A program made the translations under genes and the position numbers. From contig JAJCYD010000033.1 in the NCBI GenBank assembly GCA_029263125.1, forward strand, positions 1 to 64,000: 64,000 bases of DNA, written 5' to 3'. This document shows, one piece after another, positions 6,785 to 64,000 of the stretch (position 1 is its first letter; every line of letters begins with the position of its first letter). Origin of the DNA: Solirubrobacteraceae bacterium. GTDB lineage: Bacteria > Actinomycetota > Thermoleophilia > Solirubrobacterales > Solirubrobacteraceae. The notes beneath the pieces are model-generated. The model worked only from the letters and a program-made list of their open reading frames with translations, ran no database searches and was not told where the DNA came from.

Positions 6785-8242
6785 ATGCGCAGCCTGTTCA
6801 CCCGCCTGCTGACCGGGGGCGCCGCGTACCAGGCTTCGAGCATCGCGTCGGCGGTGCTCGCGCTCGTCACCCTGCCGCTCTACACGCGGGCGTTGACGAC
6901 GGCGGATTTCGGCATCGCCGAGACGCTGCTGACCTTCATCATCCTGGCGTCGATCCTGCTGCGACTCGGTCTGGGGGAGGCGTTCGTGCGCTATTACCAC
7001 GCGCACGAGGCGGGAACTGAGCGCGATCGCCTCGCCGCCACGACGGTCGCGGCCGTGCTGGGGATCACGACCGCCGCGGCGCTCGTGCTCGGGGCCGCGG
7101 CCGGCCCGCTGAGCACGCTGCTGCTCGGCTTCGAGGATGCCGGGATCCTGCGCATCGGCCTGCTCGGGCTGTGGGCGTTCACGAACCTCGAGATCGCCTA
7201 TGCGCTGCTGCGCGTCGAGGAGCGCCGGCGGGCCTACCTGCTGGCGTCGCTGGCCAACGTCCTGCTGACCGTGGGGCTGACGGTCACGCTCGTCGTCGTG
7301 CTCGACACGGGCGCGCGCGGCTACCTGGCCGGCAACTACGTCGGGTCGACGGTCGTCCTGCTCGCGCTGTGGTGGACGCTGCACGACCGCCTCGGCGGAC
7401 AGGTGCCGGGTCCCCGCGTCGCGCTCGCGCCGCTGCTGCGCTTCGGCGTGCCGACCGTCCCCGCCGACGCGACGGTCTTCGCGCTCAACGTCATCGACCG
7501 GGCCTACCTCCTGCGCACGCAGAGCGCCGCTGCGGCCGGGCTGTTCGCGCTGTCGGTGAAGCTCGCGACCGCGGTGATCCTCGCGGTGCGCGGCTTTCAG
7601 CTCGCGTGGCCGCCGCTGGTCTACTCGATCACCGACGACGAGCGCGCGCGGCGCTTCTACGCCGTCGTCACGACGTGGTTCGTCGTCGTCGCGGGACTCG
7701 TGGTCGCGGGCTTGACGCTGCTGGGCCGCTGGGTCGTTCGGCTGCTCGCCGCGCCGGAGTACTTCGAGGCGCACGAGGCGCTGCCGTGGGTCGCGCTCGG
7801 GTGGGCGATGTACGGGTTGTTTCTCGTGCTCGTGACGATCGGCGGCCGCGCGGGCGTCACGACGCGCAACTTCCCCGCGGCGCTGGCGGGCGTCGTGGTC
7901 AACGTCGCGGTGCTCGTGGTCCTCGTCGAGCCGTTGGGGATCGCGGGCGCCGGCATCGCGCTCGTCGCGTCGTACGCGGTGATGCTCGTCGTCCTGCACC
8001 TGCTGACGCGGCGCCTGTTCAGCGTCTCGTTTGAGTGGGGGCGCCTGGCGCACGCGGTCGGCGTGCTGGCGGGCATCGCGGTCGCGGGGGAGCTCCTGCT
8101 GCCGACGGCGGGCCTGCAAGGGTTCGTGCTGCGCGCGCTGGCGCTCGCCGCGATCCCGGTCGCGCTGCTGGGCACGGGCTTCATGCGCCCCGAGGAGCGA
8201 GCGGGGCTGGCGGGGCTCGCCCGTCGCCGGCGGGCAGCTTGA
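6785..8242 (+). CDS. Polysaccharide flippase (Wzx-like, MOP superfamily)
   Basis: 485 residues from ATG 6785, supported by TAGCGT seven bases upstream. The protein has about 12-14 hydrophobic segments across its length. It starts with the typical GGAAYQASSIASAVLALVTLPLYTR helix and TTADFGIAETL, the pattern of oligosaccharide flippases. It would move undecaprenyl-linked glycan units across the membrane. It sits among glycosyltransferases. A piece of its 3' end (8053-8136) is repeated at 11462-11545. Confidence 0.88.
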   Translation: MRSLFTRLLTGGAAYQASSIASAVLALVTLPLYTRALTTADFGIAETLLTFIILASILLRLGLGEAFVRYYHAHEAGTERDRLAATTVAAVLGITTAAALVLGAAAGPLSTLLLGFEDAGILRIGLLGLWAFTNLEIAYALLRVEERRRAYLLASLANVLLTVGLTVTLVVVLDTGARGYLAGNYVGSTVVLLALWWTLHDRLGGQVPGPRVALAPLLRFGVPTVPADATVFALNVIDRAYLLRTQSAAAAGLFALSVKLATAVILAVRGFQLAWPPLVYSITDDERARRFYAVVTTWFVVVAGLVVAGLTLLGRWVVRLLAAPEYFEAHEALPWVALGWAMYGLFLVLVTIGGRAGVTTRNFPAALAGVVVNVAVLVVLVEPLGIAGAGIALVASYAVMLVVLHLLTRRLFSVSFEWGRLAHAVGVLAGIAVAGELLLPTAGLQGFVLRALALAAIPVALLGTGFMRPEERAGLAGLARRRRAA

Positions 8243-8246
8243 TCGC

Positions 8247-9182
8247 CTACAGACGCCGTCCGCGGTTGTGCTCGGACGCCGCCTCGCGCAGGCCCTCGCC
8301 GCGCGACGGACGCAGCGTCGCGGTGACGTGGCGCCAGTAGCGCCGGGCGTCGTGGCGCGGGAGGCCCAGCGCGGCGAGCGAGCGCATCGCGTAGGTGAAA
8401 GCCGTCAGCAGCCGCACCGCCCACGCCGCCGGAGGGCTGTGATGCTTGCGCATGTACAGGTCACGGTTGCGCGACAGCTCGACGATCCGCCTCTCGGGCA
8501 CCGCTCCCGTCGAGAGCTGCTCATGGTGGATCGCGGCGGCGGCGGGCACGTACAGCGTCCGCCAGCCCGCGTCGCGCAGGCGCTTGCAGAAATCGACCTC
8601 GTCGGAGTAGACGAAGAACGCGGGATCAAACCAGCCGATCTGCTCGGCCGCCTCGCGGCGGACCAGCAGGGCAGCGGACTGCGCCCAGTCGATGTCGCGG
8701 GTGGTGTCACCGCGGCTCTGCACGGTGAAGCGGCGATGCAGGAACAGCGCCCCGACGAGCGCCGTCAGCGGGGTCGGGAAGCGCCACGCGGAAGCCTGGC
8801 GCCGGCCGTCGGGACGCAGCAGCCGGGCGCCGGCGGCGGCGGCGTCATCGCGCTCGTGCAGCGCGGCGTGCAGCGCCGCGGTCGCGCCGGGCTGAAGCTC
8901 AGAGTCCTCGTTGAGCAGCAGGCAGTAGCGCCCGGACGCGCGCTGCAGCAGATCGGAGTCGTTCTCGCCCTTGCCGCGGCGGCGCTCCAGGAGGATCAGC
9001 TGCGTCGTCGCGGGGTGTCCGCGTGCGGCGCCTGCCGACCCGTCGCCCGAGGCGTTGTCGAGCACGAGCACCTCGGTCTCGAAGTCCAGCGTGCGCTGCT
9101 CGGCGGCGATCGCATCTAGGCACCGAAGCAGCAGCTCACGCTGCTCGGTGTTCACGACGCAGAAGGAGAGCTCCACCGCCAC
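8247..9182 (-). CDS. Family 2 glycosyltransferase (rhamnosyltransferase-like)
   Basis: 311 residues from GTG 9182, chosen because TATCGT (9191-9196, minus strand) lies eight bases upstream; the frame is open further 5'. The GT-A fold is clear: FCVVNTEQRELLLRCL, VLVLDNASGDGS, GRYCLLLNEDSEL (the DxD position reads NEDSE), then the FVYSDEVDFCKRLRDAGW acceptor motif typical of GT2 rhamnosyltransferases. It converges with the flippase gene, leaving four bases between the stops. A 43-bp piece (9078-9120) reappears at 11546-11588. Confidence 0.82.
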   Translation of the reverse strand: MAVELSFCVVNTEQRELLLRCLDAIAAEQRTLDFETEVLVLDNASGDGSAGAARGHPATTQLILLERRRGKGENDSDLLQRASGRYCLLLNEDSELQPGATAALHAALHERDDAAAAGARLLRPDGRRQASAWRFPTPLTALVGALFLHRRFTVQSRGDTTRDIDWAQSAALLVRREAAEQIGWFDPAFFVYSDEVDFCKRLRDAGWRTLYVPAAAAIHHEQLSTGAVPERRIVELSRNRDLYMRKHHSPPAAWAVRLLTAFTYAMRSLAALGLPRHDARRYWRHVTATLRPSRGEGLREAASEHNRGRRL

Positions 9183-31614: not shown

Positions 31615-31653
31615 ATGGAGCGCCTGATCGCATCGCCTGTGCATGTCGCCTGA
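31615..31653 (+). CDS. Possible 12-residue leader peptide of hsdM
   Basis: ATG 31615 opens the frame MERLIASPVHVA and stops at TGA 31651-31653. That stop lies just inside hsdM, whose ATG is at 31643. hsdM has no ribosome site of its own. Translation of this short frame could therefore deliver ribosomes to hsdM by coupling. It may also be chance. Confidence 0.35.
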   Translation: MERLIASPVHVA

Positions 31654-33187
31654 CCTCGCCGAACTCGAGCGGCGCCTCTGGGACGCCGCCGACGAGCTGC
31701 GAGCGAACTCCGGGCTCAAGGCGTCCGAGTACGGCACGCCCGTCCTCGGCCTGATCTTCCTGCGCTTCGCCGACGCGAAGTTCGCGGCGGCCAAGGACGA
31801 GATCGAGGCCAAGGCGTCGGCTCGGCGCACGATCGGCCCGCCCGAGTACCACGCTCAGCGGGTGATCTACCTGACCGAGGAGGCGCGCTTTGAGCATCTC
31901 CTCGACCTGCCGGAGGGCGCCGATCTCGGCAAGGCCGTCAACGCGGCGATGCGCGCGGTGGAGAAGCACAACCCCGAGCTCGCGGGCGTCCTGCCGACGA
32001 CCTACACGTCGCTGCGCAGCGACACGGTCGCCTCGCTGCTGCGCCACATCAACAGCTACACGCGCGACCTGGAAGGCGATGCGTTCGGGCTCGTGTACGA
32101 GTATTTCCTGGGGAAGTTCGCGCTCACCGAGGGCCAGGGCGCCGGCGAGTTCTTCACGCCCGAGGCGATCGTGCGGCTCATCGTGGAAATCATCGAGCCC
32201 TACCACGGGCGGATCTTCGACCCGGCGTGCGGATCGGGCGGCATGTTCGTTCACTCGGCGCGCTTCGTCGAGCGCCACCGGCTCTCGCCGGGCGAGGAGC
32301 TGTCGATCTACGGCCAGGAGAAGACCGGCGACACCGTGCGGCTCGCGCGGATGAACCTCGCCGTCCATGGACTGTCGGGCGAGATCCGCGAGGCCAACAG
32401 CTACTACGACAACCCGCACAAGAGCCTCGGGCGCTTTGACTTCGTGATGGCGAACCCGCCGTTCAACGTCGATCGCATCGACAAGGCAAAGCTCGACGAC
32501 GATGCCCGCTTCCCCGATCTGCCACGGGCCGACAACGGCAACTACCTGTGGATCCAGCTGTTCGCGACGGCGCTGGCGACACGGGGCCGAGCGGGGTTCG
32601 TCATGGCCAACTCCGCCTCTGACGCGCGCCACAGCGAGGGCGAGATCCGGCGCAAGCTGATCGAGTCACGGATCGTCGACGTCATGGTCGCGGTCGGCTC
32701 GAACTTCTTCTACACCGTCACGCTGCCGGTGACGCTGTGGTTCCTCGATCGCGGCAAGGCCGGCACGCAACGGGCCGACAAGGTCCTGTTCATCGACGCT
32801 CGCAGCGTCTTTCGCCAGGTCGACCGCGCGCACCGCGACTTCACCGACGAGCAGATCGAGTTCCTCGCGAACATCGTCCGCTGCTACCGCGGCGAGGAGC
32901 TCGAGTTCGCATCGCAGACCAACGACCTGTTCAGCGCTCGCTTCCCCGACGGAACGTACGCCGACGTCAACGGGCTGTGCCGCGTCGCCACGGTCGAGGA
33001 GATCGAGGCGCAGGGCTGGAGCCTCAACCCCGGTCGCTACGTCGGCACCGAGGTCGAGGATCTCGACGACGAGGTCTTTGAGGAGAAGCTCGCAGCAGCC
33101 CACGTCGAGCTTCGCGAGCTCGCCGCTCGCGCCGCCAAGCTCGAAGCGGGTGTCGATCGGGTGCTGTCGCAGCTGCTGCAGCGTTGA
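31643..33187 (+). CDS. hsdM: Type I restriction-modification methyltransferase subunit
   Basis: 514 residues. N-terminal HsdM_N helical domain (LERRLWDAADELRANSGLKA), then the SAM-dependent N6-adenine methyltransferase core at about 165-400: AGEFFTPEAIVRLIVEII, FDPACGSGGMFVHSARF (motif I), and MANPPFNVD (motif IV, NPPF). It modifies the host site with HsdS and forms the core of the M2S complex. Length is typical. It is the first gene of the order M-Fic-S-R. Confidence 0.95.
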   Translation: MSPDLAELERRLWDAADELRANSGLKASEYGTPVLGLIFLRFADAKFAAAKDEIEAKASARRTIGPPEYHAQRVIYLTEEARFEHLLDLPEGADLGKAVNAAMRAVEKHNPELAGVLPTTYTSLRSDTVASLLRHINSYTRDLEGDAFGLVYEYFLGKFALTEGQGAGEFFTPEAIVRLIVEIIEPYHGRIFDPACGSGGMFVHSARFVERHRLSPGEELSIYGQEKTGDTVRLARMNLAVHGLSGEIREANSYYDNPHKSLGRFDFVMANPPFNVDRIDKAKLDDDARFPDLPRADNGNYLWIQLFATALATRGRAGFVMANSASDARHSEGEIRRKLIESRIVDVMVAVGSNFFYTVTLPVTLWFLDRGKAGTQRADKVLFIDARSVFRQVDRAHRDFTDEQIEFLANIVRCYRGEELEFASQTNDLFSARFPDGTYADVNGLCRVATVEEIEAQGWSLNPGRYVGTEVEDLDDEVFEEKLAAAHVELRELAARAAKLEAGVDRVLSQLLQR

Positions 33188-33220
33188 CAAGAACGCCCGC
33201 GTTCCGGTCGTGGCGCGTCT

Positions 33221-33259
33221 CTAACGTCGCTTGCACCTTTCGTTAGGGTCGCGTACGTT
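33221..33259 (+). promoter_or_regulatory. Promoter and dyad upstream of the Fic gene
   Basis: TTGCAC (33231-33236) and TACGTT (33254-33259) are 17 bases apart, and the ATG 33269 follows nine bases later, predicting a near-leaderless mRNA. The inverted repeat CTAACG/CGTTAG (33221-33226 and 33241-33246) flanks the -35, so Fic expression can be uncoupled from hsdM. The Fic protein has a C-terminal winged-helix-like end that might act here; that is inference. Confidence 0.6.
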
Positions 33260-33268
33260 TGCGGTTGC

Positions 33269-34429
33269 ATGGACGCCGCGGATTTCCCACGCACCCCGTT
33301 CGGCGAGGCGCGTCCGACGATCGGGCCGCACGCCTACGTCGCCTACTTTCCGGCGCCGCTGCCGCGGTCACTCGACCTCCCCGCTCGCCTCGTGGCGCTC
33401 CTCGCCGACGCCGAGGCGGCGCTCGGCCGGCTCGCTGGGGTCGGCCAGCTCCTGCCCAACCCGTATCTGCTGATCAGGCCCTACCTCCTTCGCGAGGCCG
33501 TGGCGTCGACGATGATCGAGGGGACCCGGGCGTCGCTCGCCGAGATCTTCGAGCTTGGCGCCGCCGGCGACGACCCGAACGCCGATGTCGAAGAGGTCCT
33601 CGCCTACGTCGACGCGATGGAGTGGGCTGTCAGCGAGGCAGCGCGCCTGCCGCTGAGTATCCGCATGCTCCTGGAGACCCATCGCCGCCTACTCAGCGGC
33701 GTGCGTGGTGCGCAACGTCGGCCGGGTGAGTTCCGCACGACCCAGAACTGGATCGGTCCACCGGGCTCGACGCTCGCCTCCGCGAGCTTCGTGCCACCGC
33801 CGCCCGCGGAGCTCGCGGACGCTCTGGCCGACTGGGAGCGCTTCGCCAACGAGGACCCCGACATGCCGCTGCTCGTCCAGGACGCGCTGCTGCACATCCA
33901 GTTCGAGACGATCCACCCCTTCCTCGACGGCAACGGCCGGCTCGGTCGGCTGCTCCTCGTCCTCTTCCTCATCATCCGGGGACGGCTCAGCGCGCCGTTG
34001 TTGTATCTGAGCGCTGACATCGAGCGCGAGCGCGACCGCTACTACGCGGCGCTGCGCGCCACCCGCACCGACGGCGACCCGCTCCCATGGATCGAGCTGT
34101 TCCTCGAGGCCGCGCGCTCGCAATCGGTCGACGCCGTGCAGCGCGCCGAGCGGATCATCGAGCTGCGGGAGCGCTACCGCGCGACAGCCGCCAAACTCGG
34201 CAGCGTGAATGCCCTCGGAGTCGTCGACCTCATGTGCGAGAACCCAATCGTGACGACCCGCCTCATCGAGGCCCGCCTCGGCGTTGCTCGGCCGACCGCC
34301 CTACGCCTGCTGCGTCAGCTTGAGGCGGCCGACCTGCTGGATGAGGCGCCGCAGGGCGCGCGGGGTCAGCGACGATACGTTGCCCGCGAGCTCATGGATG
34401 TAGTGACGGCAGGCGACCCGGCGGCATGA
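33269..34429 (+). CDS. Fic-domain protein (AMPylase-type)
   Basis: 386 residues from ATG 33269. The active motif HPFLDGNGRLGR (HxFx(D/E)GNGRxxR) lies at about residues 215-226, with the core helices before it. An N-terminal STMIEGT matches the (S/T)xxxE(G/N) inhibitory helix of class II Fic proteins, so it should be self-restrained. Residues 300-380 look like a winged helix (VTTRLIEARLGVARPTALRL). Fic enzymes transfer AMP (or other groups) to Tyr/Ser/Thr of a target. It sits between hsdM and hsdS. hsdS begins one base after its stop. Confidence 0.93.
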   Translation: MDAADFPRTPFGEARPTIGPHAYVAYFPAPLPRSLDLPARLVALLADAEAALGRLAGVGQLLPNPYLLIRPYLLREAVASTMIEGTRASLAEIFELGAAGDDPNADVEEVLAYVDAMEWAVSEAARLPLSIRMLLETHRRLLSGVRGAQRRPGEFRTTQNWIGPPGSTLASASFVPPPPAELADALADWERFANEDPDMPLLVQDALLHIQFETIHPFLDGNGRLGRLLLVLFLIIRGRLSAPLLYLSADIERERDRYYAALRATRTDGDPLPWIELFLEAARSQSVDAVQRAERIIELRERYRATAAKLGSVNALGVVDLMCENPIVTTRLIEARLGVARPTALRLLRQLEAADLLDEAPQGARGQRRYVARELMDVVTAGDPAA

Positions 34430-34430
34430 C

Positions 34431-35612
34431 ATGAGCAATCAGACGCTGGCGGAGCTTTGCATCCTGATCGCAGACTCGGAGCACAAGACAGCACCAAAAG
34501 ATCCCGCGGGCGGCCATCCACTTGTCCGAACGCCGGACCTGGGCCGCGCGCGCATCGACTTCGGCACGGCCCAGCGAGTGAACGCCGAGACGTACGCCGA
34601 GTGGACTCGTCGCGGGCGGCCCCAGACCGGTGATCTGATCCTCGCTCGAGAGGCACCGGTAGGTGGGGTGGGGCGCGTACCTGACGGCGTCCACCCGGTG
34701 TTGGGGCAGCGAACCGTCTTATTGCGTCCCTGCCGCGGCGCTGACAGCCGGTTTCTGATGTACCGGCTTGCCGCCGCCGATCTGCAGGGGCGCATCGCAG
34801 AGATGGCGACAGGCTCGACGGTGCCCCATCTCAACATGAGTGACATCCGCGCGCTTGTAGTCCCTGACCTCCCAGATCTCGAAGAGCAGCGGCGCCGAGC
34901 AGCTGGGCTCGCGGCCTTCGACGAGCTCATCGAGATCAACGAGCGCCGGATCGATCTGCTCGAGGATCTCGCCCGCTCGCTCTACCGCGAGTGGTTCGTG
35001 CGGTATCGCTCCGGCGGGCACGTGCAGGTGTCGCTTCGGCAGTCCAAGCTCGGGCTCGTCCCGTCGTCTTGGGACATCGCTTCCCTTGGGGACGTCGCGA
35101 CTCTCAGGTACGGCAAGGCACTGCCGGCCAGGGCGAGGCGGCCCGGCACGGTGGCGGTTGTTTCGTCTGCCGGCCTGGTCGACGAGCACGACGAAGCGCT
35201 GGTCGACGGCCCGGGCGTGGTGATTGGACGTAAGGGCAACGTCGGATCTGTCTGGTGGGTCCATTGCCCGTTCTTCCCGATTGATACCGCCTACTACCTC
35301 GACACGACCATGCCGCTGGGATTCTTGTACTGGCAGCTGCGCGGCATGACGTTTATCGATTCCCATGCGGCAGTTCCTGGGTTGAGTCGCGAGCAAGCAC
35401 ACGGTATGCCGGTGCTGGTTCCGCCGGAAGATCTGGTCCGCGAGTTTGACGTCGTGCATCGAGCGTGCTTTGGCTTGATCAGCGGGCTTCGCCGAGCCAT
35501 CGACAGGCTTCTTCACACGCGCGACCTCTTGCTCCCGCGTCTCGTCACGGGCCAGCTCGACATCGCCGACATCGACCTCGGCGACCTCCTCCCCGACGAG
35601 GCTGCCGCGTGA
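34431..35612 (+). CDS. hsdS: Type I restriction-modification specificity subunit
   Basis: 393 residues from ATG 34431. Two target-recognition domains of about 150 residues each are separated by a coiled-coil spacer (DELIEINERRIDLLEDLARS), and a second helical repeat closes the protein (RRAIDRLLHTRDLLLPRLVTG). The C-terminal half contains the RPGTVAVVSSAG, IGRKGNVGSVWW style of TRD. GC content is lower here than in neighbours, as usual for TRDs exchanged by recombination. Recognises a bipartite DNA site that cannot be predicted from sequence. GTGA overlap with hsdR. Confidence 0.93.
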   Translation: MSNQTLAELCILIADSEHKTAPKDPAGGHPLVRTPDLGRARIDFGTAQRVNAETYAEWTRRGRPQTGDLILAREAPVGGVGRVPDGVHPVLGQRTVLLRPCRGADSRFLMYRLAAADLQGRIAEMATGSTVPHLNMSDIRALVVPDLPDLEEQRRRAAGLAAFDELIEINERRIDLLEDLARSLYREWFVRYRSGGHVQVSLRQSKLGLVPSSWDIASLGDVATLRYGKALPARARRPGTVAVVSSAGLVDEHDEALVDGPGVVIGRKGNVGSVWWVHCPFFPIDTAYYLDTTMPLGFLYWQLRGMTFIDSHAAVPGLSREQAHGMPVLVPPEDLVREFDVVHRACFGLISGLRRAIDRLLHTRDLLLPRLVTGQLDIADIDLGDLLPDEAAA

Positions 35613-38600
35613 CACCCGCCGGCTTCTCCGAGCTGGGTCTCGTCGAGAAGCCGACGCTCGAACTGCTCGCCCACCTCGGCTACGAGATCGTCGACGCCTA
35701 CGCCGAGCGGTACGGGGCCGACAGCGTCACCAACGGCTCCCCGGGACGCGACGATCGCTCCCAAACCATCCTGCGCCACCGGCTGCGCCCGAAGCTCGCG
35801 CAGCTCAACCCCGACCTGCCACCCGACGCACTCGACCTGGCCGTCGAGCAGCTCGCGCTCGACCGCTCGGCGATGGATCGCGTTCGCGCCAACCAGGCGG
35901 TCTGGAAGCTGCTGCGCGACGGCGCGACGGTCACGTACGCGACGGATGACGGTGGCCGCGAGACCGAGGCGGTCCGCTTCGTCGACTGGCGCGATCCGGC
36001 GGCGAACGACTTCCTCGCCGTCTCGCAGCTGTGGATCACCGGGCCGTTGCACACACGCCGCACGGACATCGTGTGCTTCGTCAACGGGATCCCGCTGGTG
36101 CTGCTGGAGCTGAAGGCGTCGCACAAGTCCGCCAAGGAGGCCTACGACAAGAACCTCACCGACTATCGCGACACGATCCCGCAGCTGTTCACGCCGAACG
36201 GGCTCGTGATCCTGAGCACCGGCTCGGAGACGAAGATCGGCGCGACGTTCGCGCCATGGGAGCGCTTCGGCGACTGGCGCAAGGTCGCCGACGAGGAGGA
36301 GCCGGGCGTCGTGTCGCTGGAGACGGCGTTGCGCGGCCTGTGCGAACCGGCGCGACTGCTCGACGCGATCGAGAGCTTCGTCGGCTACCTCGAGCGACCG
36401 GGAGGCCTCGTCAAGGTCCTCGCGCAGAACCACCAGGTCCTCGGCGTCAACGCGGCGATGCGGGCGCTGCGCGACGAGCGCACCCGCGAGGGCAAGCTCG
36501 GCGTCTTCTGGCACACGCAGGGCTCGGGCAAGAGCCTGTCGATGCTGTTCTTCACCCAGAAGGTCCTGCGCCGTGAGCCCGGCAACTGGACATTCGTGAT
36601 GGTCACCGACCGCGCCGAGCTCGACGACCAGCTCTACGGCGAGTTCAAGGACGCCGGCGTCGTCGACGGCCATCTCCAAGCCGATTCGTCGGCGCATCTG
36701 CGCCAGCTGCTCGGCGAGGAGCACCGCTACGTCTTCACGCTGATCCACAAGTTCCGCACCGAGCGCAACGTGGCGATGGCGGTCTGCTCGCCGCGCGACG
36801 ACATCATCGTCATCACCGACGAGGCGCACCGCACGCAGTACTCCGATCTCGCCCTGAACATGCGCCAAGCGCTGCCGAATGCGAGCTTCCTCGGATTCAC
36901 CGGCACGCCGCTGATCGCCGGCGAGCTGCAGCGCACGCGCGATGTCTTCGGCGACTACGTCTCGACCTACAACTTCCGCGACTCGATCGAGGACGGCGCC
37001 ACCGTCCCGCTGTTCTATGAGAACCGCATCCCCGAGCTACAGATCGTCAACGAGCGCTTCGACGACGAGCTCACCGAGATCCTCGAACGCGCCGAGCTCG
37101 ACGAGCAGCAGGAGCGCGCGCTGTCGCGCCGCTTCGGCGCCGAGTACCAGCTCATCACGCGCCCCGCGCGCCTGAAGCGGATCGCGGCCGACCTCGTGCG
37201 CCACTTCGTCGGCCGGGGATTTCTCGGCAAGGCGATGTTCGTCGCGATCGACAAGGCGACCGCGGTGCGGATGTACGACCTCGTCCAGGAGGCGTGGGCC
37301 GAACATCTCGCCGAGCTGGAGGAGCTCGCCGGCAGGCTGGCTCCGCTGGAACGCGACGGCGTCACGAAGCAGATCGCATTCATGCGCGAGACCGACATGG
37401 CCGTCGTCATCTCGCAGTCTCAGAACGAGATCGCCGACATGCAGGAGCTCGGCCTGGACATCACGCCGCACCGCAGGCGGATGGTGCAGGAGGACCTCGA
37501 CGAGCGCTTCAAGGATCCCGCCGATCGCTTCCGGCTCGTCTTCGTCTGCGCGATGTGGATGACGGGCTTCGACGTCCCGTCGTGCTCGACGATCTACCTC
37601 GATCGTCCGATGCGCAACCACACGCTGATGCAGACGATCGCGCGGGCAAACCGGGTGTTCCCCGACAAGGAGGCGGGCCTGATCGTCGACTACGTCGGCG
37701 TGTTCCGTCACCTGGAGGCGGCGCTGGCGATCTACGCCGCGGGGCCGGCGGGTGAGTCGGCGCGCGACGTGATCCGCGACAAGGCCGCGCTCGTCGGCGA
37801 GCTGGAGGAGGAGCTCGGCGACCTGCTGGAGTTCGCGCAGCGCTGGGACGTCGAGCTTGAGGACCTCGCGGCCGCCGACGGCTTTGAGTTCATCGCGCTG
37901 CGCGACGCGTCGGTCGAAGCGCTGCTCGTCGACGCCGTCACGCGCCGTGCGTACCTCGAGCGTTCCGATCGCGTGCGCCGGTTGTTCGCGGCGATCCTGC
38001 CCGACCCGTCGGCGGCCCCGCGGGCGCGGCTGGTCGGCGTCGCGCGCAACCTCGCCGAACGGATTCGCTCGCTTGACGAGCCGCCCGATGTCTCGCACGT
38101 CGCCGGCGCCGTGAGCGAGCTGCTCGACCGCTCGGTGGGTGCCGAGGAGTACGTCATCCGCGCCGCCGCCGAGGGCGCCGAGCACGACACGTGGATCGAC
38201 CTCAACGCGATCGACTTCGAGACGCTCGCGGCGAAGCTCGCCGGTCGCAAGCGCTCCGGCGCCCAGCGCCTGGCGAGAACGCTCGCCGATCGGCTCGAGG
38301 CCAGCGCTCGCCGTAACCCGTCGCGCCTTGACCTCGTCGCGAGGCTGCGCGCGCTGATCGAGGCCTACAACGCCGGAAGCCTCAACGTCGACGAGCTGCT
38401 GCGCCGCGTGCTGACCCTCTCGCGCGACCTCTCCGAGGACGAGCAGCGGACGGCTCGCGAAGGCCTCAGCGAGCCCGAGCTCGCCGTCTTCGACCTGCTC
38501 ACCAAGCCCGACCCGGTGCTCACGGACGCCGAGCGGGCGCGGGTCAAGCAGGTCGCCCGCAAGCTCATGGAGCACATCACCGATCGGCTCGTGCTCGACT

Positions 38601-39436
38601 GGCGGCGCAAGGCCGAGACCCGCGAGGCGGCGCGTGTGCTCGTGCGCGACGTGCTCGACGAGCTGCCCGACGTCTATGACCCGGAGACGTGGCAGCGCAA
38701 GACGGATGCGGTGTTCAACCACATCTTCGCCAGCTACTACGACGACGGCGGAAGCGTCTACGACGAGCAGGTCGCGGCTTCGAATGCGCCGGTCGCCGTT
38801 GTCGACACGCCGCCGTCGGCTTCACGCGTCGTTTCCGCCGCCGACGTCGATATCGGCGATATCACGCTCGCGGTCGTCGAGCAGATCCGGACCGACCCCT
38901 CCCTCGCAGAGCTGATCGCCGGGCAGCTCAAGGGCAAGGAGGCCTTCTTCGCCGTGCCCAGCCGCGAGCTGATCGACGGCGACGAGACGTTCGAGGTCGA
39001 GTTCAAGTCGACGGCTCGCTGGAACCTCCGCGAGGCCATCAAGGACAAGCGCATGGAGGACGCCGTCGTCAAGACGATCGCGGGCTTTCTGAACACCGAC
39101 GGCGGCACGCTCTTCATCGGCATCGACGACCGGCGCAACGCGATCGGCCTGGAGCACGACACCCCGCTCGTCAAGCCGCCGAACGTCGACGGCCTCGTCA
39201 ACTGGCTCACGACCCATCTCGCAGCAGCGATCACCCACACCGCCGCCATGCGCGCTCGTACCCGGATCGAGCATGTCGACGGCGTCGAGATCTGTCGCGT
39301 CGACGTCGCCCGTTCCTCGCGACCCGTCACGGCGCGCATGAGCGACAAGCGCGAGAGGTTCTGGGTCCGCATGAACAACTCGACGCGCGCGCTGCCGGAG
39401 ATCGAGATCGAGGATTACTGCCGCGATCACTGGTGA
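35609..39436 (+). CDS. hsdR: Type I restriction subunit HsdR with C-terminal AlbA_2 (Schlafen-like) domain
   Basis: 1275 residues from GTG 35609, which overlaps the hsdS stop. N-terminal HSDR_N nuclease (RTDIVCFVNGIPLVLLELKA, PD-(D/E)XK with D and ExK). The ATPase has HTQGSGKSLSML (Walker A), DEAHRTQYSD (motif II) and CAMWMTGFDVPSCSTIYLDRP, then the C-terminal helical region. After about residue 1120, GDETFEVEFKSTARWNLREA, KTIAGFLNTDGGTLFIGIDD and FWVRMNNSTRALP match the AlbA_2/Schlafen-AAA fold. Ordinary HsdR proteins end before this. Domain fusion is read directly; its effect is unknown. Confidence 0.93.
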   Translation: MTPAGFSELGLVEKPTLELLAHLGYEIVDAYAERYGADSVTNGSPGRDDRSQTILRHRLRPKLAQLNPDLPPDALDLAVEQLALDRSAMDRVRANQAVWKLLRDGATVTYATDDGGRETEAVRFVDWRDPAANDFLAVSQLWITGPLHTRRTDIVCFVNGIPLVLLELKASHKSAKEAYDKNLTDYRDTIPQLFTPNGLVILSTGSETKIGATFAPWERFGDWRKVADEEEPGVVSLETALRGLCEPARLLDAIESFVGYLERPGGLVKVLAQNHQVLGVNAAMRALRDERTREGKLGVFWHTQGSGKSLSMLFFTQKVLRREPGNWTFVMVTDRAELDDQLYGEFKDAGVVDGHLQADSSAHLRQLLGEEHRYVFTLIHKFRTERNVAMAVCSPRDDIIVITDEAHRTQYSDLALNMRQALPNASFLGFTGTPLIAGELQRTRDVFGDYVSTYNFRDSIEDGATVPLFYENRIPELQIVNERFDDELTEILERAELDEQQERALSRRFGAEYQLITRPARLKRIAADLVRHFVGRGFLGKAMFVAIDKATAVRMYDLVQEAWAEHLAELEELAGRLAPLERDGVTKQIAFMRETDMAVVISQSQNEIADMQELGLDITPHRRRMVQEDLDERFKDPADRFRLVFVCAMWMTGFDVPSCSTIYLDRPMRNHTLMQTIARANRVFPDKEAGLIVDYVGVFRHLEAALAIYAAGPAGESARDVIRDKAALVGELEEELGDLLEFAQRWDVELEDLAAADGFEFIALRDASVEALLVDAVTRRAYLERSDRVRRLFAAILPDPSAAPRARLVGVARNLAERIRSLDEPPDVSHVAGAVSELLDRSVGAEEYVIRAAAEGAEHDTWIDLNAIDFETLAAKLAGRKRSGAQRLARTLADRLEASARRNPSRLDLVARLRALIEAYNAGSLNVDELLRRVLTLSRDLSEDEQRTAREGLSEPELAVFDLLTKPDPVLTDAERARVKQVARKLMEHITDRLVLDWRRKAETREAARVLVRDVLDELPDVYDPETWQRKTDAVFNHIFASYYDDGGSVYDEQVAASNAPVAVVDTPPSASRVVSAADVDIGDITLAVVEQIRTDPSLAELIAGQLKGKEAFFAVPSRELIDGDETFEVEFKSTARWNLREAIKDKRMEDAVVKTIAGFLNTDGGTLFIGIDDRRNAIGLEHDTPLVKPPNVDGLVNWLTTHLAAAITHTAAMRARTRIEHVDGVEICRVDVARSSRPVTARMSDKRERFWVRMNNSTRALPEIEIEDYCRDHW

Positions 39437-60556: not shown

Positions 60557-60997
60557 GTGGCTGGACCGACCATGCCGACGCGCGCCGAGCCGTCGCTCGC
60601 CCTCGTGCGCCGCCTGATCGCGCTCGCGGTGCTGGCCGCATGGTCGATCACGCCGCCCTACGTCGGGCCGGCCCTGGGGCTGCGCCTCGACGTCGCCTCG
60701 TCGCTGGAGGTCATCGACCACGTGCTGCCCGGCGTGGCCTGCCTGCTCGCCGCCTGCATCGCGACCTTCCGCGCGCGCCGTGGCGCGACGGATGACACGT
60801 TCACGCTGGCGCTGCTGGGCGTGATCGTGCTCGCGTCGCTGTTTCAGACGGTCTCCCACGTGCCCCTGGTCCTGGACGTCGGCAGCCCGGTCGCGCCGGC
60901 CGGGGCCGTCGCGCTGCACGCGTCGCCGGGTCCCGTGCTGCTGGCGCTGTCGCTGTGGCTGCTGCTGCGCCCGGTGCCCGAGGCCGCCTTGCCGTGA
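60557..60997 (+). CDS. Small membrane protein upstream of a cobalamin-type methyltransferase
   Basis: 146 residues. GTG 60557 is chosen because TACGCT (60545-60550) lies six bases upstream; ATG 60572 is possible. Four membrane helices over the whole length, with short loops (RRLIALAVLAAWSITPPYVG, VIDHVLPGVACLLAACIATF). No family recognised. It overlaps the next gene as GTGA, so it may serve as a metal or cofactor transporter for it; that is context only. Confidence 0.6.
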   Translation: MAGPTMPTRAEPSLALVRRLIALAVLAAWSITPPYVGPALGLRLDVASSLEVIDHVLPGVACLLAACIATFRARRGATDDTFTLALLGVIVLASLFQTVSHVPLVLDVGSPVAPAGAVALHASPGPVLLALSLWLLLRPVPEAALP

Positions 60998-61656
60998 GCG
61001 GCGGGCGGGTCGTGTTCGTCGGCTGCGGACCCGGGGCCGCGGACCTGCTGACCCTGCGCGCGATCCGGGCGCTGCGGGACGCCGACGTCGTCATCTGGCA
61101 TGCGGCGCTGCTGGAACGCCGCGTGCTCGACGAGCACCTTCGCGACGGGGCCGAGGTCGTGCAGTGGCCGCCCGCCACGGGCGCGGACATCCTCGCGATC
61201 TTCGACCGGGCCGTCACCGAGGAGCTGCTCGTCGTCCGGCTGAAGGGCGGCGATCCAACCGTGTTCGGCGCGCTGGAGCCGGAGTTGTCGGCGGTTGCGC
61301 AGCGCGGCCTTGGGTGTGCCGTGGTCCCCGGAGTCAGCGCGTTCGCGGCGGGCGCCGCGGCGCTGGGCCTCGAGGTCGCTCGTCCGTCGGCGCCTCTGCT
61401 GCTGGTGGAGGCGGCGGATCTGGACGCGTCGCCCGGCCCCCCGTGGGCCTTCGCGGTGCATGCGCCCAACCGCGACCCCCGCCGCCTTCAGCAGGCGCTG
61501 CTGGATCGGGGATTGGCGGACTCCGCGCCCTGCGTCGTGGTCATCGAGGTGTCGCGCACGGAGCAGACCGCCGTGCCCTGCAGTCTCGGCGAGCTCGCCG
61601 AGACGATCGAGGACTTCGGGCTGGGCGTGCTGACGCTCGTGCTCGCGGGTCCGTAG
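60994..61656 (+). CDS. cobM: Tetrapyrrole methyltransferase, CobM-like
   Basis: 220 residues from GTG 60994. The uroporphyrin-III methylase fold is clear: VFVGCGPGAADLLTLRAIRA, VVRLKGGDPTVFGALEPELS, and VVPGVSAFAAGAAALGLEVA. The VPGVSxFxAxAAAL stretch is closest to precorrin-4 C11-methyltransferase. It is about 30 residues shorter than typical CobM. The usual neighbours of a cobalamin operon are absent, so the exact step is not certain. Confidence 0.7.
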   Translation: MSGGRVVFVGCGPGAADLLTLRAIRALRDADVVIWHAALLERRVLDEHLRDGAEVVQWPPATGADILAIFDRAVTEELLVVRLKGGDPTVFGALEPELSAVAQRGLGCAVVPGVSAFAAGAAALGLEVARPSAPLLLVEAADLDASPGPPWAFAVHAPNRDPRRLQQALLDRGLADSAPCVVVIEVSRTEQTAVPCSLGELAETIEDFGLGVLTLVLAGP

Positions 61657-61757: not shown

Positions 61758-62804
61758 TCAGCGCGTGACGCCCGGCAGCGAGAACTCTTCGGCGAGCAGC
61801 TCATACGAGCGCCGGCGCGCAGCGGGATCGTGGGCCACCGTGATCACGAGCAGCTCGTCGGCTGCGTACTCCGCAGCCAGCTCATCCAGGCCCGCTCGCA
61901 CCGTGGCCGGGCATCCGACCACCATGCGCTTGCCCACATCGCCACCCGCGGGCTCTCCGCGGGTGCGCCGTTCGACGAAGCGCAGCGCGGTCTCCACGGG
62001 TGGCACCGCCGTGAACTTCCCGCGGCGCGCGAGCAGTGCCACCATCCGAGCGCTGGCCGCCAGGCGCTCGGCCTCCGCGTCGCTGTCGGCGCACAGCGCC
62101 CAGACGGCCACGGCGGTCTGCGGTCGAGCCGAGCGCATGGAGGGCGCGAAGCGCTCGCGGTAGCGCTGCACGATGTCCACGCCGCCACCCGGGTTGATGA
62201 AGTCGCCGAACGCGTAGGGCAGTCCGAGCTCGGCCGCCCAGATCGCGCTCTGCGGCGAGGATCCCAGCAGCCACGGCTCCGGGCCTCCGGGCCGCCCCGC
62301 CAGGCGCGCCGGCAGTCCCGCGAACAGATGCCCGTCGGGCAGCCGGTCGTCGAGCAGCGCGAGCAGTTCGGAGAGCTGCTCGCCGAAGTCATCGGGCGCC
62401 GGGTGGTTGCGATCGCGCTGCATCGCAAACTGCGTGACCGGATCGTCGGTTCCGTCCGTGCGGCCGATCCCGAGGTCGACGCGGCCGGGGAAGAGGGCGC
62501 TGAGCACGCTGAAGGTCTCGGCGACCTTGAACGGGCTGTAGTGCGGGAGCATGACGCCGCCGCTGCCCACGCGCAGACGCGAGGTGATCGACGCGATCGG
62601 ACCGATCAGGGCCTCGGGACTGGTTCCGGCGAGCATCGGGCTGGCGTGATGCTCGGCCAGCCAATAGCGGTGATAGCCGTGCTCGTCGGCGAGACGGGCG
62701 AGGTCGAGCGTGTCGCGCAACGCCTGCGCGCCCGTCGAACCCAGCGCGATCGGGGATTGGTCCAGCACGCCGATGCGCAGCCGCGATGGCGCTGAAGCGC
62801 TCAT
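61758..62804 (-). CDS. LLM-class flavin-dependent oxidoreductase
   Basis: 348 residues from ATG 62804. Luciferase-like TIM barrel: LRIGVLDQSPIALGSTG, HGYHRYWLAEHHASPMLAGT, RLRVGSGGVMLPHYSPFKVA, FPGRVDLGIGRT and PWLLGSSPQSAIWAAELGL. Uses reduced flavin (FMN or F420) to oxidise a small molecule. Closest in style to the MsnO8 group. It is divergent from the MerR gene. Confidence 0.92.
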   Translation of the reverse strand: MSASAPSRLRIGVLDQSPIALGSTGAQALRDTLDLARLADEHGYHRYWLAEHHASPMLAGTSPEALIGPIASITSRLRVGSGGVMLPHYSPFKVAETFSVLSALFPGRVDLGIGRTDGTDDPVTQFAMQRDRNHPAPDDFGEQLSELLALLDDRLPDGHLFAGLPARLAGRPGGPEPWLLGSSPQSAIWAAELGLPYAFGDFINPGGGVDIVQRYRERFAPSMRSARPQTAVAVWALCADSDAEAERLAASARMVALLARRGKFTAVPPVETALRFVERRTRGEPAGGDVGKRMVVGCPATVRAGLDELAAEYAADELLVITVAHDPAARRRSYELLAEEFSLPGVTR

Positions 62805-62852: not shown

Positions 62853-62884
62853 TTGACCTGACACCACGGTGGCAGGTGTACCTT
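62853..62884 (+). promoter_or_regulatory. MerR-type promoter with 20-bp spacer
   Basis: TTGACC (62853-62858) and TACCTT (62879-62884) are 20 bases apart, as in MerR/ZntR promoters where the regulator untwists an overlong spacer. The dyad ACACC/GGTGT (62861-62865 and 62875-62879) is centred in it. The ATG 62891 is six bases further, so the mRNA is predicted leaderless. Confidence 0.8.
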
Positions 62885-62890
62885 CGATGC

Positions 62891-63307
62891 ATGGGACTCA
62901 CCGTCAAGCAGGTAGCCGATCGTGTCGGGCTGCCGAGCCGCACCGTGCGCTACTACGACCACATCGGCCTGGTGCGCGCCGAGGACCGCAGCGGCACCGG
63001 ATATCGGCTCTACGGAGCGCAAGACGAAGGCCGGCTGCGGTTCGTGCGCAGCGCCAAGCGGCTCGGATTCTCGCTCGACGAGATTCGCGGCCTGATGGCG
63101 GCCGCGGAGAGCGGATGTGGTGGCACCGAACCGGAGCTCCAGCGGTTGCTGGAGCAGAAGGTGCGGGACATCGACACCACGATTATCGAGCTCACGGCCT
63201 TCCGCAGCCGTCTCGTCGAATACCGCGCGGACAGGCGCGTGTTCGAACACCGCCGTTGCGGTCATGGCGCGTTCTGCGGCTGCCTCGACGACGTCCCTGA
63301 CCCGTAG
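62891..63307 (+). CDS. MerR-family metal-responsive regulator
   Basis: 138 residues from ATG 62891. N-terminal winged HTH (TVKQVADRVGLPSRTVRYYD). C76 sits at the start of the dimer helix, as C79 of ZntR or PbrR, where Cu(I) sensors have Ser. The C-terminal loop has C123, C129 and C131 (CGHGAFCGC). This set fits a divalent metal sensor (Zn, Cd, Pb or Hg) rather than copper. It should activate its own overlong promoter and the metallothionein-like gene 30 bases downstream. Confidence 0.9.
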   Translation: MGLTVKQVADRVGLPSRTVRYYDHIGLVRAEDRSGTGYRLYGAQDEGRLRFVRSAKRLGFSLDEIRGLMAAAESGCGGTEPELQRLLEQKVRDIDTTIIELTAFRSRLVEYRADRRVFEHRRCGHGAFCGCLDDVPDP

Positions 63308-63337
63308 TACCAATCGAATCGACGAAAGGTGATCCAT

Positions 63338-63538
63338 ATGTCATGCCAATGCGCCACCCCGACGGCCTCCCCGAGCGACGCCGACAGCACGACCAGCGGA
63401 TGCGGCTGCGTCACGAGCTCGGCCGGCGGATGCCAGTGCGCGAGCTGCGCCCCGTCCCCGTCTGCTGATGCGCCGAGCATCGAGGAGATCGTCTCCGGTC
63501 TCGACGAGCGCCTGCGCAAGCTCGAGGCCGGCGTCTGA
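63338..63538 (+). CDS. Metallothionein-like cysteine-rich small protein
   Basis: 66 residues from ATG 63338, preceded by AAAGGTGAT. Seven cysteines in 37 residues: C3, C5, C22, C24, C32, C34, C37, including three CxC pairs and CxCxxC. There is no signal peptide. The C-terminal 20 residues are helical (SIEEIVSGLDERLRKLEAGV). It is co-directional with the MerR gene and should sequester the metal that the regulator senses. Confidence 0.75.
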   Translation: MSCQCATPTASPSDADSTTSGCGCVTSSAGGCQCASCAPSPSADAPSIEEIVSGLDERLRKLEAGV

Positions 63539-63556: not shown

Positions 63557-64000
63557 TCAGGCGGCAACGTCCGCTTGGGCACACGCCGGGCACAGCCTCC
63601 GGCCCGCCAGCTCGCGGATGCGCGGCTGCATCGTGCCCTCTCCGCATCCGTCGCAGACGACGGTCGGGTAGATCTGGGCCTTCTGGGGGATGTCGTCGAG
63701 CGCGACCTGCTCGACGCGTTGCACCTCGGGCTCGGGCGCGTCGAGGATCTCCTGCGAGCGGAGGCGCTGGAGCTCCTTGAAACGTGTCCGGTCGGCCTCG
63801 CCGGCGTCTCCCGATCTCACCTTCGCGAACAGCTCCAGGCGCTCGGGCTCTGATCCCTGCGTCGTCGGCCGGGCGACGATCCGCACCGCCTTGCCATCAG
63901 AACGCCGGACGAAGGTGTAGGCGTTCTTGCCGTGATCGACGTGGATCAGGTTGCCCTTGCCGAAGGTGCACCCCGTCACGAACTGGATCGCGTCGACCGC
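63557..64000 (-). CDS. FmdE-family protein, partial at window edge
   Basis: At least 147 residues, 5' end beyond the window. Visible: AVDAIQFVTGCTFGKGNLIH and VDHGKNAYTFVRRSDGKAVR, the FmdE core, with a CTFGKGN cysteine. The C-terminal part ends in a zinc ribbon (VCDGCGEGTMQPRIRELAGR, then RLCPACAQ). FmdE-like proteins are linked to molybdenum or tungsten formylmethanofuran dehydrogenase and to formate dehydrogenase maturation. The 3' end converges with the metallothionein-like gene (18 bases). Confidence 0.85.
   Translation of the reverse strand, partial: AVDAIQFVTGCTFGKGNLIHVDHGKNAYTFVRRSDGKAVRIVARPTTQGSEPERLELFAKVRSGDAGEADRTRFKELQRLRSQEILDAPEPEVQRVEQVALDDIPQKAQIYPTVVCDGCGEGTMQPRIRELAGRRLCPACAQADVAA

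What the first reader, a model, noticed from the sequence alone, without database searches (positions are those of the whole stretch)
62853..63538. Metal-sensing MerR with a metallothionein-like protein
A 20-bp-spacer promoter with a perfect dyad drives a leaderless MerR gene, and a 66-residue protein with seven Cys in CxC pairs follows 30 bases later. C76 and CGHGAFCGC suggest a divalent metal. Bacterial metallothioneins are few; this small, helix-ended form is not one I recognise. Sensor plus trap forms a minimal metal-buffering operon.
Basis: partly seen in the sequence, partly recalled or inferred. Interest (0 to 1): 0.6.

Follow-up and report, generated by a model that had tools for sequence, protein, structure and literature searches.

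The report
Metal-sensor and metallothionein-like protein pair
A soil actinobacterium carries a self-regulated gene pair, a metal-sensing switch followed by a tiny cysteine-rich protein that probably mops up the metal; relatives repeat or fuse the pair, and it is often found beside genes for a nickel-containing hydrogenase, which hints at an undescribed way of protecting or feeding that enzyme.

Summary
It is perfect or nearly so in most relatives. A MerR gene (62891-63307) is driven by TTGACC-20 bp-TACCTT with the start codon 6 bases after the -10, and 30 bases on follows a 66-residue, 7-Cys protein (63338-63538). Across Solirubrobacterales genomes, 15 of 18 orthologous merR loci carry a Cys-rich partner immediately downstream or fused in frame, and the operator is essentially confined to these promoters. 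One extra operator copy drives a lone copy of the small protein, which marks it as the regulon's output. The most likely mechanism is that a ZntR/CadR-like divalent-metal sensor activates its own leaderless operon, and the Cys protein sequesters the metal. It matches no Pfam or NCBIfam metallothionein. Two further findings: (1) in several other actinobacterial families, MerRs of this group have a CxCxCC-type tail fused on; (2) the module repeatedly lies in or beside [NiFe]-hydrogenase/hyp clusters, including just outside this window. The metal is unknown: Zn/Cd is favoured from the ligand pattern, and Ni is raised by the context. All function is inferred; nothing was tested at the bench.

The parts
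62853..62884 (+). MerR-type promoter/operator: -35 TTGACC, 20-bp spacer with near-perfect dyad ACCTGACACC-AC-GGTGGCAGGT (62856-62877), -10 TACCTT
   Evidence: unique in own genome with up to 3 mismatches; conserved upstream of orthologous merR genes, zero hits for the control pattern
62891..63307 (+). merR: metal-responsive MerR-family regulator, 138 aa, C76 plus C-terminal loop C123-GHGAF-C129-G-C131; probably leaderless mRNA
   Evidence: Pfam MerR_1 1e-17, MerR-DNA-bind 2.7e-15; nearest NCBIfam ZntR below cut-off; AlphaFold pLDDT 88; best Foldseek hit CadR-Cd-DNA 6jgx
63338..63538 (+). Small Cys-rich protein, 66 aa, 7 Cys (CxC x3 + C), disordered Cys-rich N-terminal part and amphipathic C-terminal helix 48-65; proposed metal trap
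   Evidence: homologues downstream of merR in relatives; no Pfam/NCBIfam match; helix pLDDT about 96
63557..64000 (-). FmdE-like protein with dksA/traR-type zinc ribbon, convergent with the pair and cut by the window end; first gene of the neighbouring hydrogenase region (CobW, PadR, CooC-like ATPase, NiFe hydrogenase small and large subunits beyond the window)
61758..62804 (-). MsnO8-family luciferase-like oxidoreductase, upstream neighbour on the other strand; the same family neighbours merR in hydrogenase-linked loci L070, L073, L075

Best explanation
An autoregulated metal-responsive operon. Shown from sequence: a MerR protein, a MerR-type promoter with an over-long 20-bp spacer directly in front of it, and a co-oriented Cys-rich small protein 30 bases downstream, all conserved together. 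Inferred: the apo MerR dimer sits on the operator and holds the promoter down. When a soft or borderline +2 metal ion (most likely Zn or Cd class) binds C76' of one protomer plus the C123/C129/C131(/H125) loop of the other, MerR distorts the DNA and the leaderless merR-small gene transcript is made. The small protein then binds the metal through its CxC thiolates, lowers free metal and shuts the sensor off. Its C-terminal helix probably mediates self-association or docking, possibly onto MerR. In several other lineages an equivalent Cys-rich segment is fused to MerR itself, so sensor and trap work as one module. Its recurrent place in hydrogenase clusters suggests that in those genomes it guards or serves nickel-enzyme assembly.
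For: Orthologous MerRs form one clade in 16 of 232 order genomes, and 15 of 18 loci have a Cys-rich protein directly downstream or fused. A conserved operator lies at the merR promoters. It is absent elsewhere except one extra site in G208, which drives a stand-alone homologue of the small protein. In-frame MerR-Cys fusions in G120 and G130, and C-terminal Cys-rich tails in MerRs of other families (L113, L116, L117, L118, L121, L122, L124), are Rosetta-stone evidence for a functional link. C76 and the C-terminal Cys loop match the published +2 selectivity rule (PMC9909328); nearest models and structures are ZntR and CadR. MerR activation of a small Cys4 metal-binding protein has a precedent, CadR to Zrd (PMC12301328).
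Against: No metal induction or binding data. The small protein matches no metallothionein family. It evolves fast (pN/pS 0.5-1.0), and some orthologues have only 4 Cys, or a GS repeat in place of CxC pairs (L040, L041, L042), which is few for a high-capacity trap. Three MerR loci (G130 C39, G206, G207) have no partner beside them. The hydrogenase-operon MerRs of family f23 lack C76, so the sensed signal may differ within the wider family.
Confidence: 0.62

Rival explanations
1. Nickel or hydrogenase module: the MerR senses Ni(II) (or mis-metallating Zn) and the small protein is a metal buffer or donor dedicated to [NiFe]-hydrogenase maturation, working with the CobW GTPase and FmdE-zinc-ribbon proteins beside it.
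For: FmdE, CobW, PadR, CooC-like ATPase and NiFe hydrogenase subunits begin right after the pair. Solirubrobacterales relatives G131, G207 and probably G130 C39 have MerR in hydrogenase/hyp clusters. MerR is directly upstream of CooC-hydrogenase and next to FmdE in family f23. MerR plus a Cys-helix protein is divergent from hypC-hypD-hypE in G718. A lone homologue of the small protein overlaps hypD in G004. Of these, G131, G207, G718, G752 and G574 show no HypA match.
Against: Most genus relatives with hydrogenase have the pair elsewhere (G006 near smpB, G004 C237) or no small protein before hypD. Pairs also exist in non-hydrogenase contexts, for example a P1B-ATPase neighbourhood (G018; L113). 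From general knowledge, many known Ni sensors rely on His ligands, which are scarce in this loop; the one characterised Ni MerR, NimR, controls an uptake transporter. G000 itself has HypA.
Confidence: 0.18
2. Copper(I)/silver operon: the Cys-rich protein is a MymT-like Cu(I) store under a CueR-like sensor.
For: CxC motifs bind Cu(I) well; CueR is among the nearest sequence relatives; two pairs lie near P1B ATPases with HMA domains.
Against: A Cys at the position where CueR has Ser77 argues against +1 ions. The ATPase and HMA genes in L068 have their own, different operator-like promoter.
Confidence: 0.1
3. The small protein is mainly a co-regulator: it docks on MerR through its helix and strips metal from it or displaces it, a MerD-like brake rather than a bulk store. 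(This can be true together with the sensor part of the best explanation.)
For: Fusions to MerR, loss of most Cys in some orthologues with the helix kept (L040, L041, L042), tight co-occurrence with MerR.
Against: Lone copies without an adjacent merR (G208 site, G004 hypD); Cys-richest forms (L047, L111) look like stores; some partners lack the helix.
Confidence: 0.1
4. The MerR carries a [2Fe-2S] or redox/thiol switch (SoxR-like) and the small protein is a thiol redox protein.
For: Four C-terminal-loop Cys in many relatives, and no C76 in the f23 hydrogenase-operon MerRs.
Against: The window protein has only three loop Cys; C76 is conserved in the Solirubrobacterales clade; the loop spacing is not SoxR's CxxCxCxxxxxC; SoxR scores far lower than ZntR/MerR/CueR.
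Confidence: 0.05

Closest known systems
ZntR / CadR / MerR (metal-responsive MerR family)
   Same: HTH plus dimerisation helix plus C-terminal Cys loop; Cys at position 76/77/79; 19-20-bp spacer operator; best model ZntR (8e-21), best structure CadR
   Different: Below every equivalog cut-off; loop CxxxxFCGC is its own; regulates itself and a Cys-rich protein, not an efflux ATPase; leaderless autoregulated operon
CadR-Zrd of Pseudomonas aeruginosa (PMC12301328)
   Same: A MerR-family Cd/Zn sensor activates a small Cys-rich metal-binding protein
   Different: Zrd is a zinc-ribbon protein with two predicted Cys4 mononuclear sites; CadR is best known for driving the efflux ATPase CadA; no sensor-trap fusion
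SmtB-SmtA (cyanobacterial metallothionein operon)
   Same: Metal sensor next to a metallothionein gene it controls
   Different: SmtB is an ArsR-family repressor, divergent from smtA; SmtA belongs to the bacterial metallothionein family, which the small protein does not match
MymT (mycobacterial Cu metallothionein)
   Same: Small actinobacterial Cys-rich protein (from general knowledge)
   Different: No model match here; different regulation; no C-terminal helix known to me
NimR (Ni-responsive MerR, Haemophilus influenzae)
   Same: A MerR protein tied to nickel (PMC7055735)
   Different: Controls a Ni uptake transporter; no paired Cys-rich protein

Membership tests
Metal-responsive MerR family | MerR HTH and MerR DNA-binding/dimerisation domains | tested here: met
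   Pfam PF13411, PF00376, PF09278 over gathering cut-offs; AlphaFold model and Foldseek hits to CadR/CueR/MerR
Metal-responsive MerR family | 19-20 bp spaced promoter with dyad | tested here: met
   20-bp spacer, 9/10 arms; conserved in relatives
Metal-responsive MerR family | Metal-binding Cys: one from the other protomer (77/79) and a C-terminal loop pair | tested here: met
   C76, C123, C129, C131 in the sequence; C129 and C131 invariant in 25 relatives. Binding itself not testable here
ZntR / CadR-PbrR / MerR / CueR equivalogs | Score above the NCBIfam equivalog cut-off | tested here: not met
   ZntR 74.5 vs 168 bits, MerR 71 vs 151, CueR 69 vs 147, CadR-PbrR 60 vs 151
Bacterial metallothionein (SmtA/BmtA family; any Pfam or NCBIfam metallothionein) | Match to a family profile | tested here: not met
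   No metallothionein family among hits at E<=5 for any of 11 members; HMMER's filters can drop weak matches of such short proteins
Metallothionein in the broad sense | Small, Cys-rich with CxC motifs | tested here: met
   7 Cys in 66 residues, three CxC; homologues have 4 or more Cys
Metallothionein in the broad sense | Binds metal in thiolate clusters | not testable with these tools
   Needs purified protein
SoxR | CxxCxCxxxxxC [2Fe-2S] loop and SoxR score | tested here: not met
   Loop is CGHGAFCGC; SoxR 39.9 vs cut-off 116.9 bits
NimR-type Ni sensor | Ni(II) responsiveness | not testable with these tools
   Only contextual link to hydrogenase genes

The most novel reading that the evidence does not exclude
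A previously undescribed actinobacterial module in which a MerR sensor and a metallothionein-like domain, split or fused, are dedicated to [NiFe]-hydrogenase assembly: it senses and buffers nickel (or the zinc that would mis-metallate it) during maturation of hydrogenases like those of H2-oxidising soil bacteria.
Probability: 0.2. Interest if true: 0.75.

Novelty: new variant of a known kind. Interest (0 to 1): 0.5.

Why it matters
Bacterial metallothioneins are few and their regulation is rarely clear. Here a lineage-specific Cys-rich protein is tied by operon, operator and gene fusion to one class of metal sensor, so its inducing metal and function become directly testable. If the hydrogenase link is functional, it would show how soil actinobacteria, an important group of H2 oxidisers, manage metal supply to that enzyme.

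Tried and rejected
Efflux pump as the partner: six E1-E2 ATPase domains in the genome, none next to the pair, and the operator occurs only at this promoter. Assigning the metal from the P1B ATPase near MerR in G018: the ATPase and its HMA gene have a different operator-like site and a second MerR stands nearby, so it does not define the metal. A small Cys protein before hypD as a general feature: only G004 among seven genus genomes, and G001's contig is cut there. PDB search with the small-protein profile: nothing significant. Plasmid carriers: no place at 60% identity or more, and the Rhodococcus MerR has a different extension. Literature: no paper found describing MerR-metallothionein fusions or a MerR regulator of these hydrogenase clusters; subscription papers are not covered, so this is weak.

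Full report
What is there. In G000 (3.75 Mb, contig C33; the window is C33:1-64000) a merR gene (62891-63307) and a 66-codon gene (63338-63538) are co-oriented, 30 bases apart. Nearest named relatives are Solirubrobacteraceae/Thermoleophilaceae MAGs. The promoter reads TTGACC - 20 bp - TACCTT, with the dyad ACCTGACACC/GGTGGCAGGT between the hexamers and the ATG six bases after the -10. There is no room for a Shine-Dalgarno site, so a leaderless mRNA is likely. A start codon about 6 bases after the -10 is kept in 15 other loci, with -10 TATCCT and a perfect dyad in many; three loci of one subclade have a 19-bp spacer.

Is it real. The MerR is over the Pfam cut-offs, and AlphaFold gives a normal MerR fold (pLDDT 88) with CadR-Cd/Zn-DNA as the best structural match. 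The small ORF has homologues at the same place in relatives, most with a ribosome-binding-site-like purine run, conserved N-terminal CxC and C-terminal LDxRxxxLE helix, and mild purifying selection (pN/pS about 0.5-0.6 in most pairs but about 1.0 in one close pair). AlphaFold predicts a confident helix at 48-65 and disorder elsewhere; the helix is amphipathic against shuffles in the window protein (p about 0.004).

Who has it. With a MerR profile, 16 of 232 order genomes (18 loci) have an orthologue; in a sample of 399 class genomes all hits fall in the same order. Fifteen of the 18 loci have a Cys-rich protein directly downstream or fused; for G079 the exact start codon is unclear. In G120 and G130 C2 the merR stop is missing and the Cys protein continues in frame, with an internal ATG preceded by a purine-rich run, so both fused and free forms could be made. 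The partners vary widely: MACQCGCC + helix with four Cys (G208), six or seven Cys + helix (window genus), many CxC without helix (G131).

Regulon. The operator with up to 3 mismatches occurs only once in G000. In 16 carriers a related pattern hits only merR promoters except one site in G208, which drives a lone small-protein homologue (LACQCGC...ACGC...LVKELDQRVRELE). The pattern read backwards gives zero hits. So the small protein is the regulated output, not a bystander.

Wider family. Across 396 phylum genomes, 34 have a MerR matching the profile at E<=1e-22. In family f23, MerRs that are sister to the Solirubrobacterales clade (94/87 and 91/89 support) carry a C-terminal tail CRCGCC or similar; others (L113, L116, L117, L118) have metallothionein-like tails such as CSCGGACGTAGCGCGCMCC; L111 has an overlapping separate ORF with about 16 Cys in under 40 residues. 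Repeated fusion and fission of sensor and Cys-rich segment is the strongest evidence that they work together.

Hydrogenase link. Immediately right of the pair lie FmdE, CobW, PadR, a CooC-like ATPase and the small and large subunits of a [NiFe] hydrogenase. A separately supported MerR subclade (G130 C39, G131, G206, G207; 100/100) lies next to hydrogenase/hyp genes and an MsnO8 luciferase-like oxidoreductase where the contigs are long enough (G131, G207, and in part G130); the window pair also has an MsnO8 neighbour. In f23 the MerR is the first gene before CooC and the hydrogenase small subunit, with FmdE adjacent in several. In G718 a more distant MerR plus a Cys-helix protein is divergent from a hypC-...-hypD-hypE operon. 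In G004 a lone homologue of the small protein overlaps hypD. The linkage is therefore recurrent, but not universal (G006, G208, G120, G079, G211 are elsewhere), I did not test it against a formal null, and shared ancestry of some cases is likely. HypA is not found in five of the linked genomes but is present in G000 and G130, so HypA replacement is only a lead.

Mechanism. Shown: architecture, conservation, operator specificity, fusion. Inferred: metal-dependent activation by DNA distortion, thiolate sequestration, feedback. Metal: C76 plus Cys loop indicates +2 ions by the published rule (PMC9909328), and ZntR is the nearest model; CCGHGSFCGC in G002/G004 recalls the Cys114-Cys115-...-His119-...-Cys124 dinuclear site that the review gives for ZntR. 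My split: Zn/Cd/Pb/Hg class about 60-65%, Ni about 20%, Cu(I) about 10%, other the rest.

Novelty. Sensor-plus-metallothionein is a known plan (SmtB-SmtA; CadR-Zrd). New here are the protein family, the MerR-metallothionein fusions and the hydrogenase association, none of which I found in the open-access library.

Noticed in passing
L002 (G000 C33:63000-82000), right of the window end: A [NiFe] hydrogenase cluster (small and large subunits, two maturation proteases, CooC-like ATPase, PadR, CobW, FmdE) starts with FmdE right after the pair, the structural genes about 5 kb further on; hypD is at C33:124200 and hypA at C33:132959.
   Followed up: partly
L076 / L010 (G208 C1:818000-837500): A stretch of about 5.5 kb with merR, the small gene and neighbours is repeated in tandem, with two nearly identical copies of merR, the small gene and the next gene.
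   Followed up: no
L042 (G004 C237) 1246-1473 minus: In this orthologue of the small protein the middle CxC pairs are replaced by a (GS)n repeat while the N-terminal CQCGC and the helix remain.
   Followed up: no
L070, L073, L075 and window 61758-62804: An MsnO8-family luciferase-like oxidoreductase recurs beside merR in hydrogenase-linked loci; role unknown.
   Followed up: partly
L068 9448-9864 minus and 8082-8294 minus: A second MerR stands near an HMA protein and a P1B ATPase with an unusual YPC motif; a different operator-like site (CTTGACCTTCCACCGCACTGGAAG) precedes the HMA gene.
   Followed up: no
window 31643-39436: ORFs beginning at 31643, 33269, 34431 and 35465 look by eye like a type I restriction-modification or related defence cluster.
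   Followed up: no
window 60955-61656: Tetrapyrrole methylase, nearest to precorrin-4 C11-methyltransferase but below cut-off.
   Followed up: no
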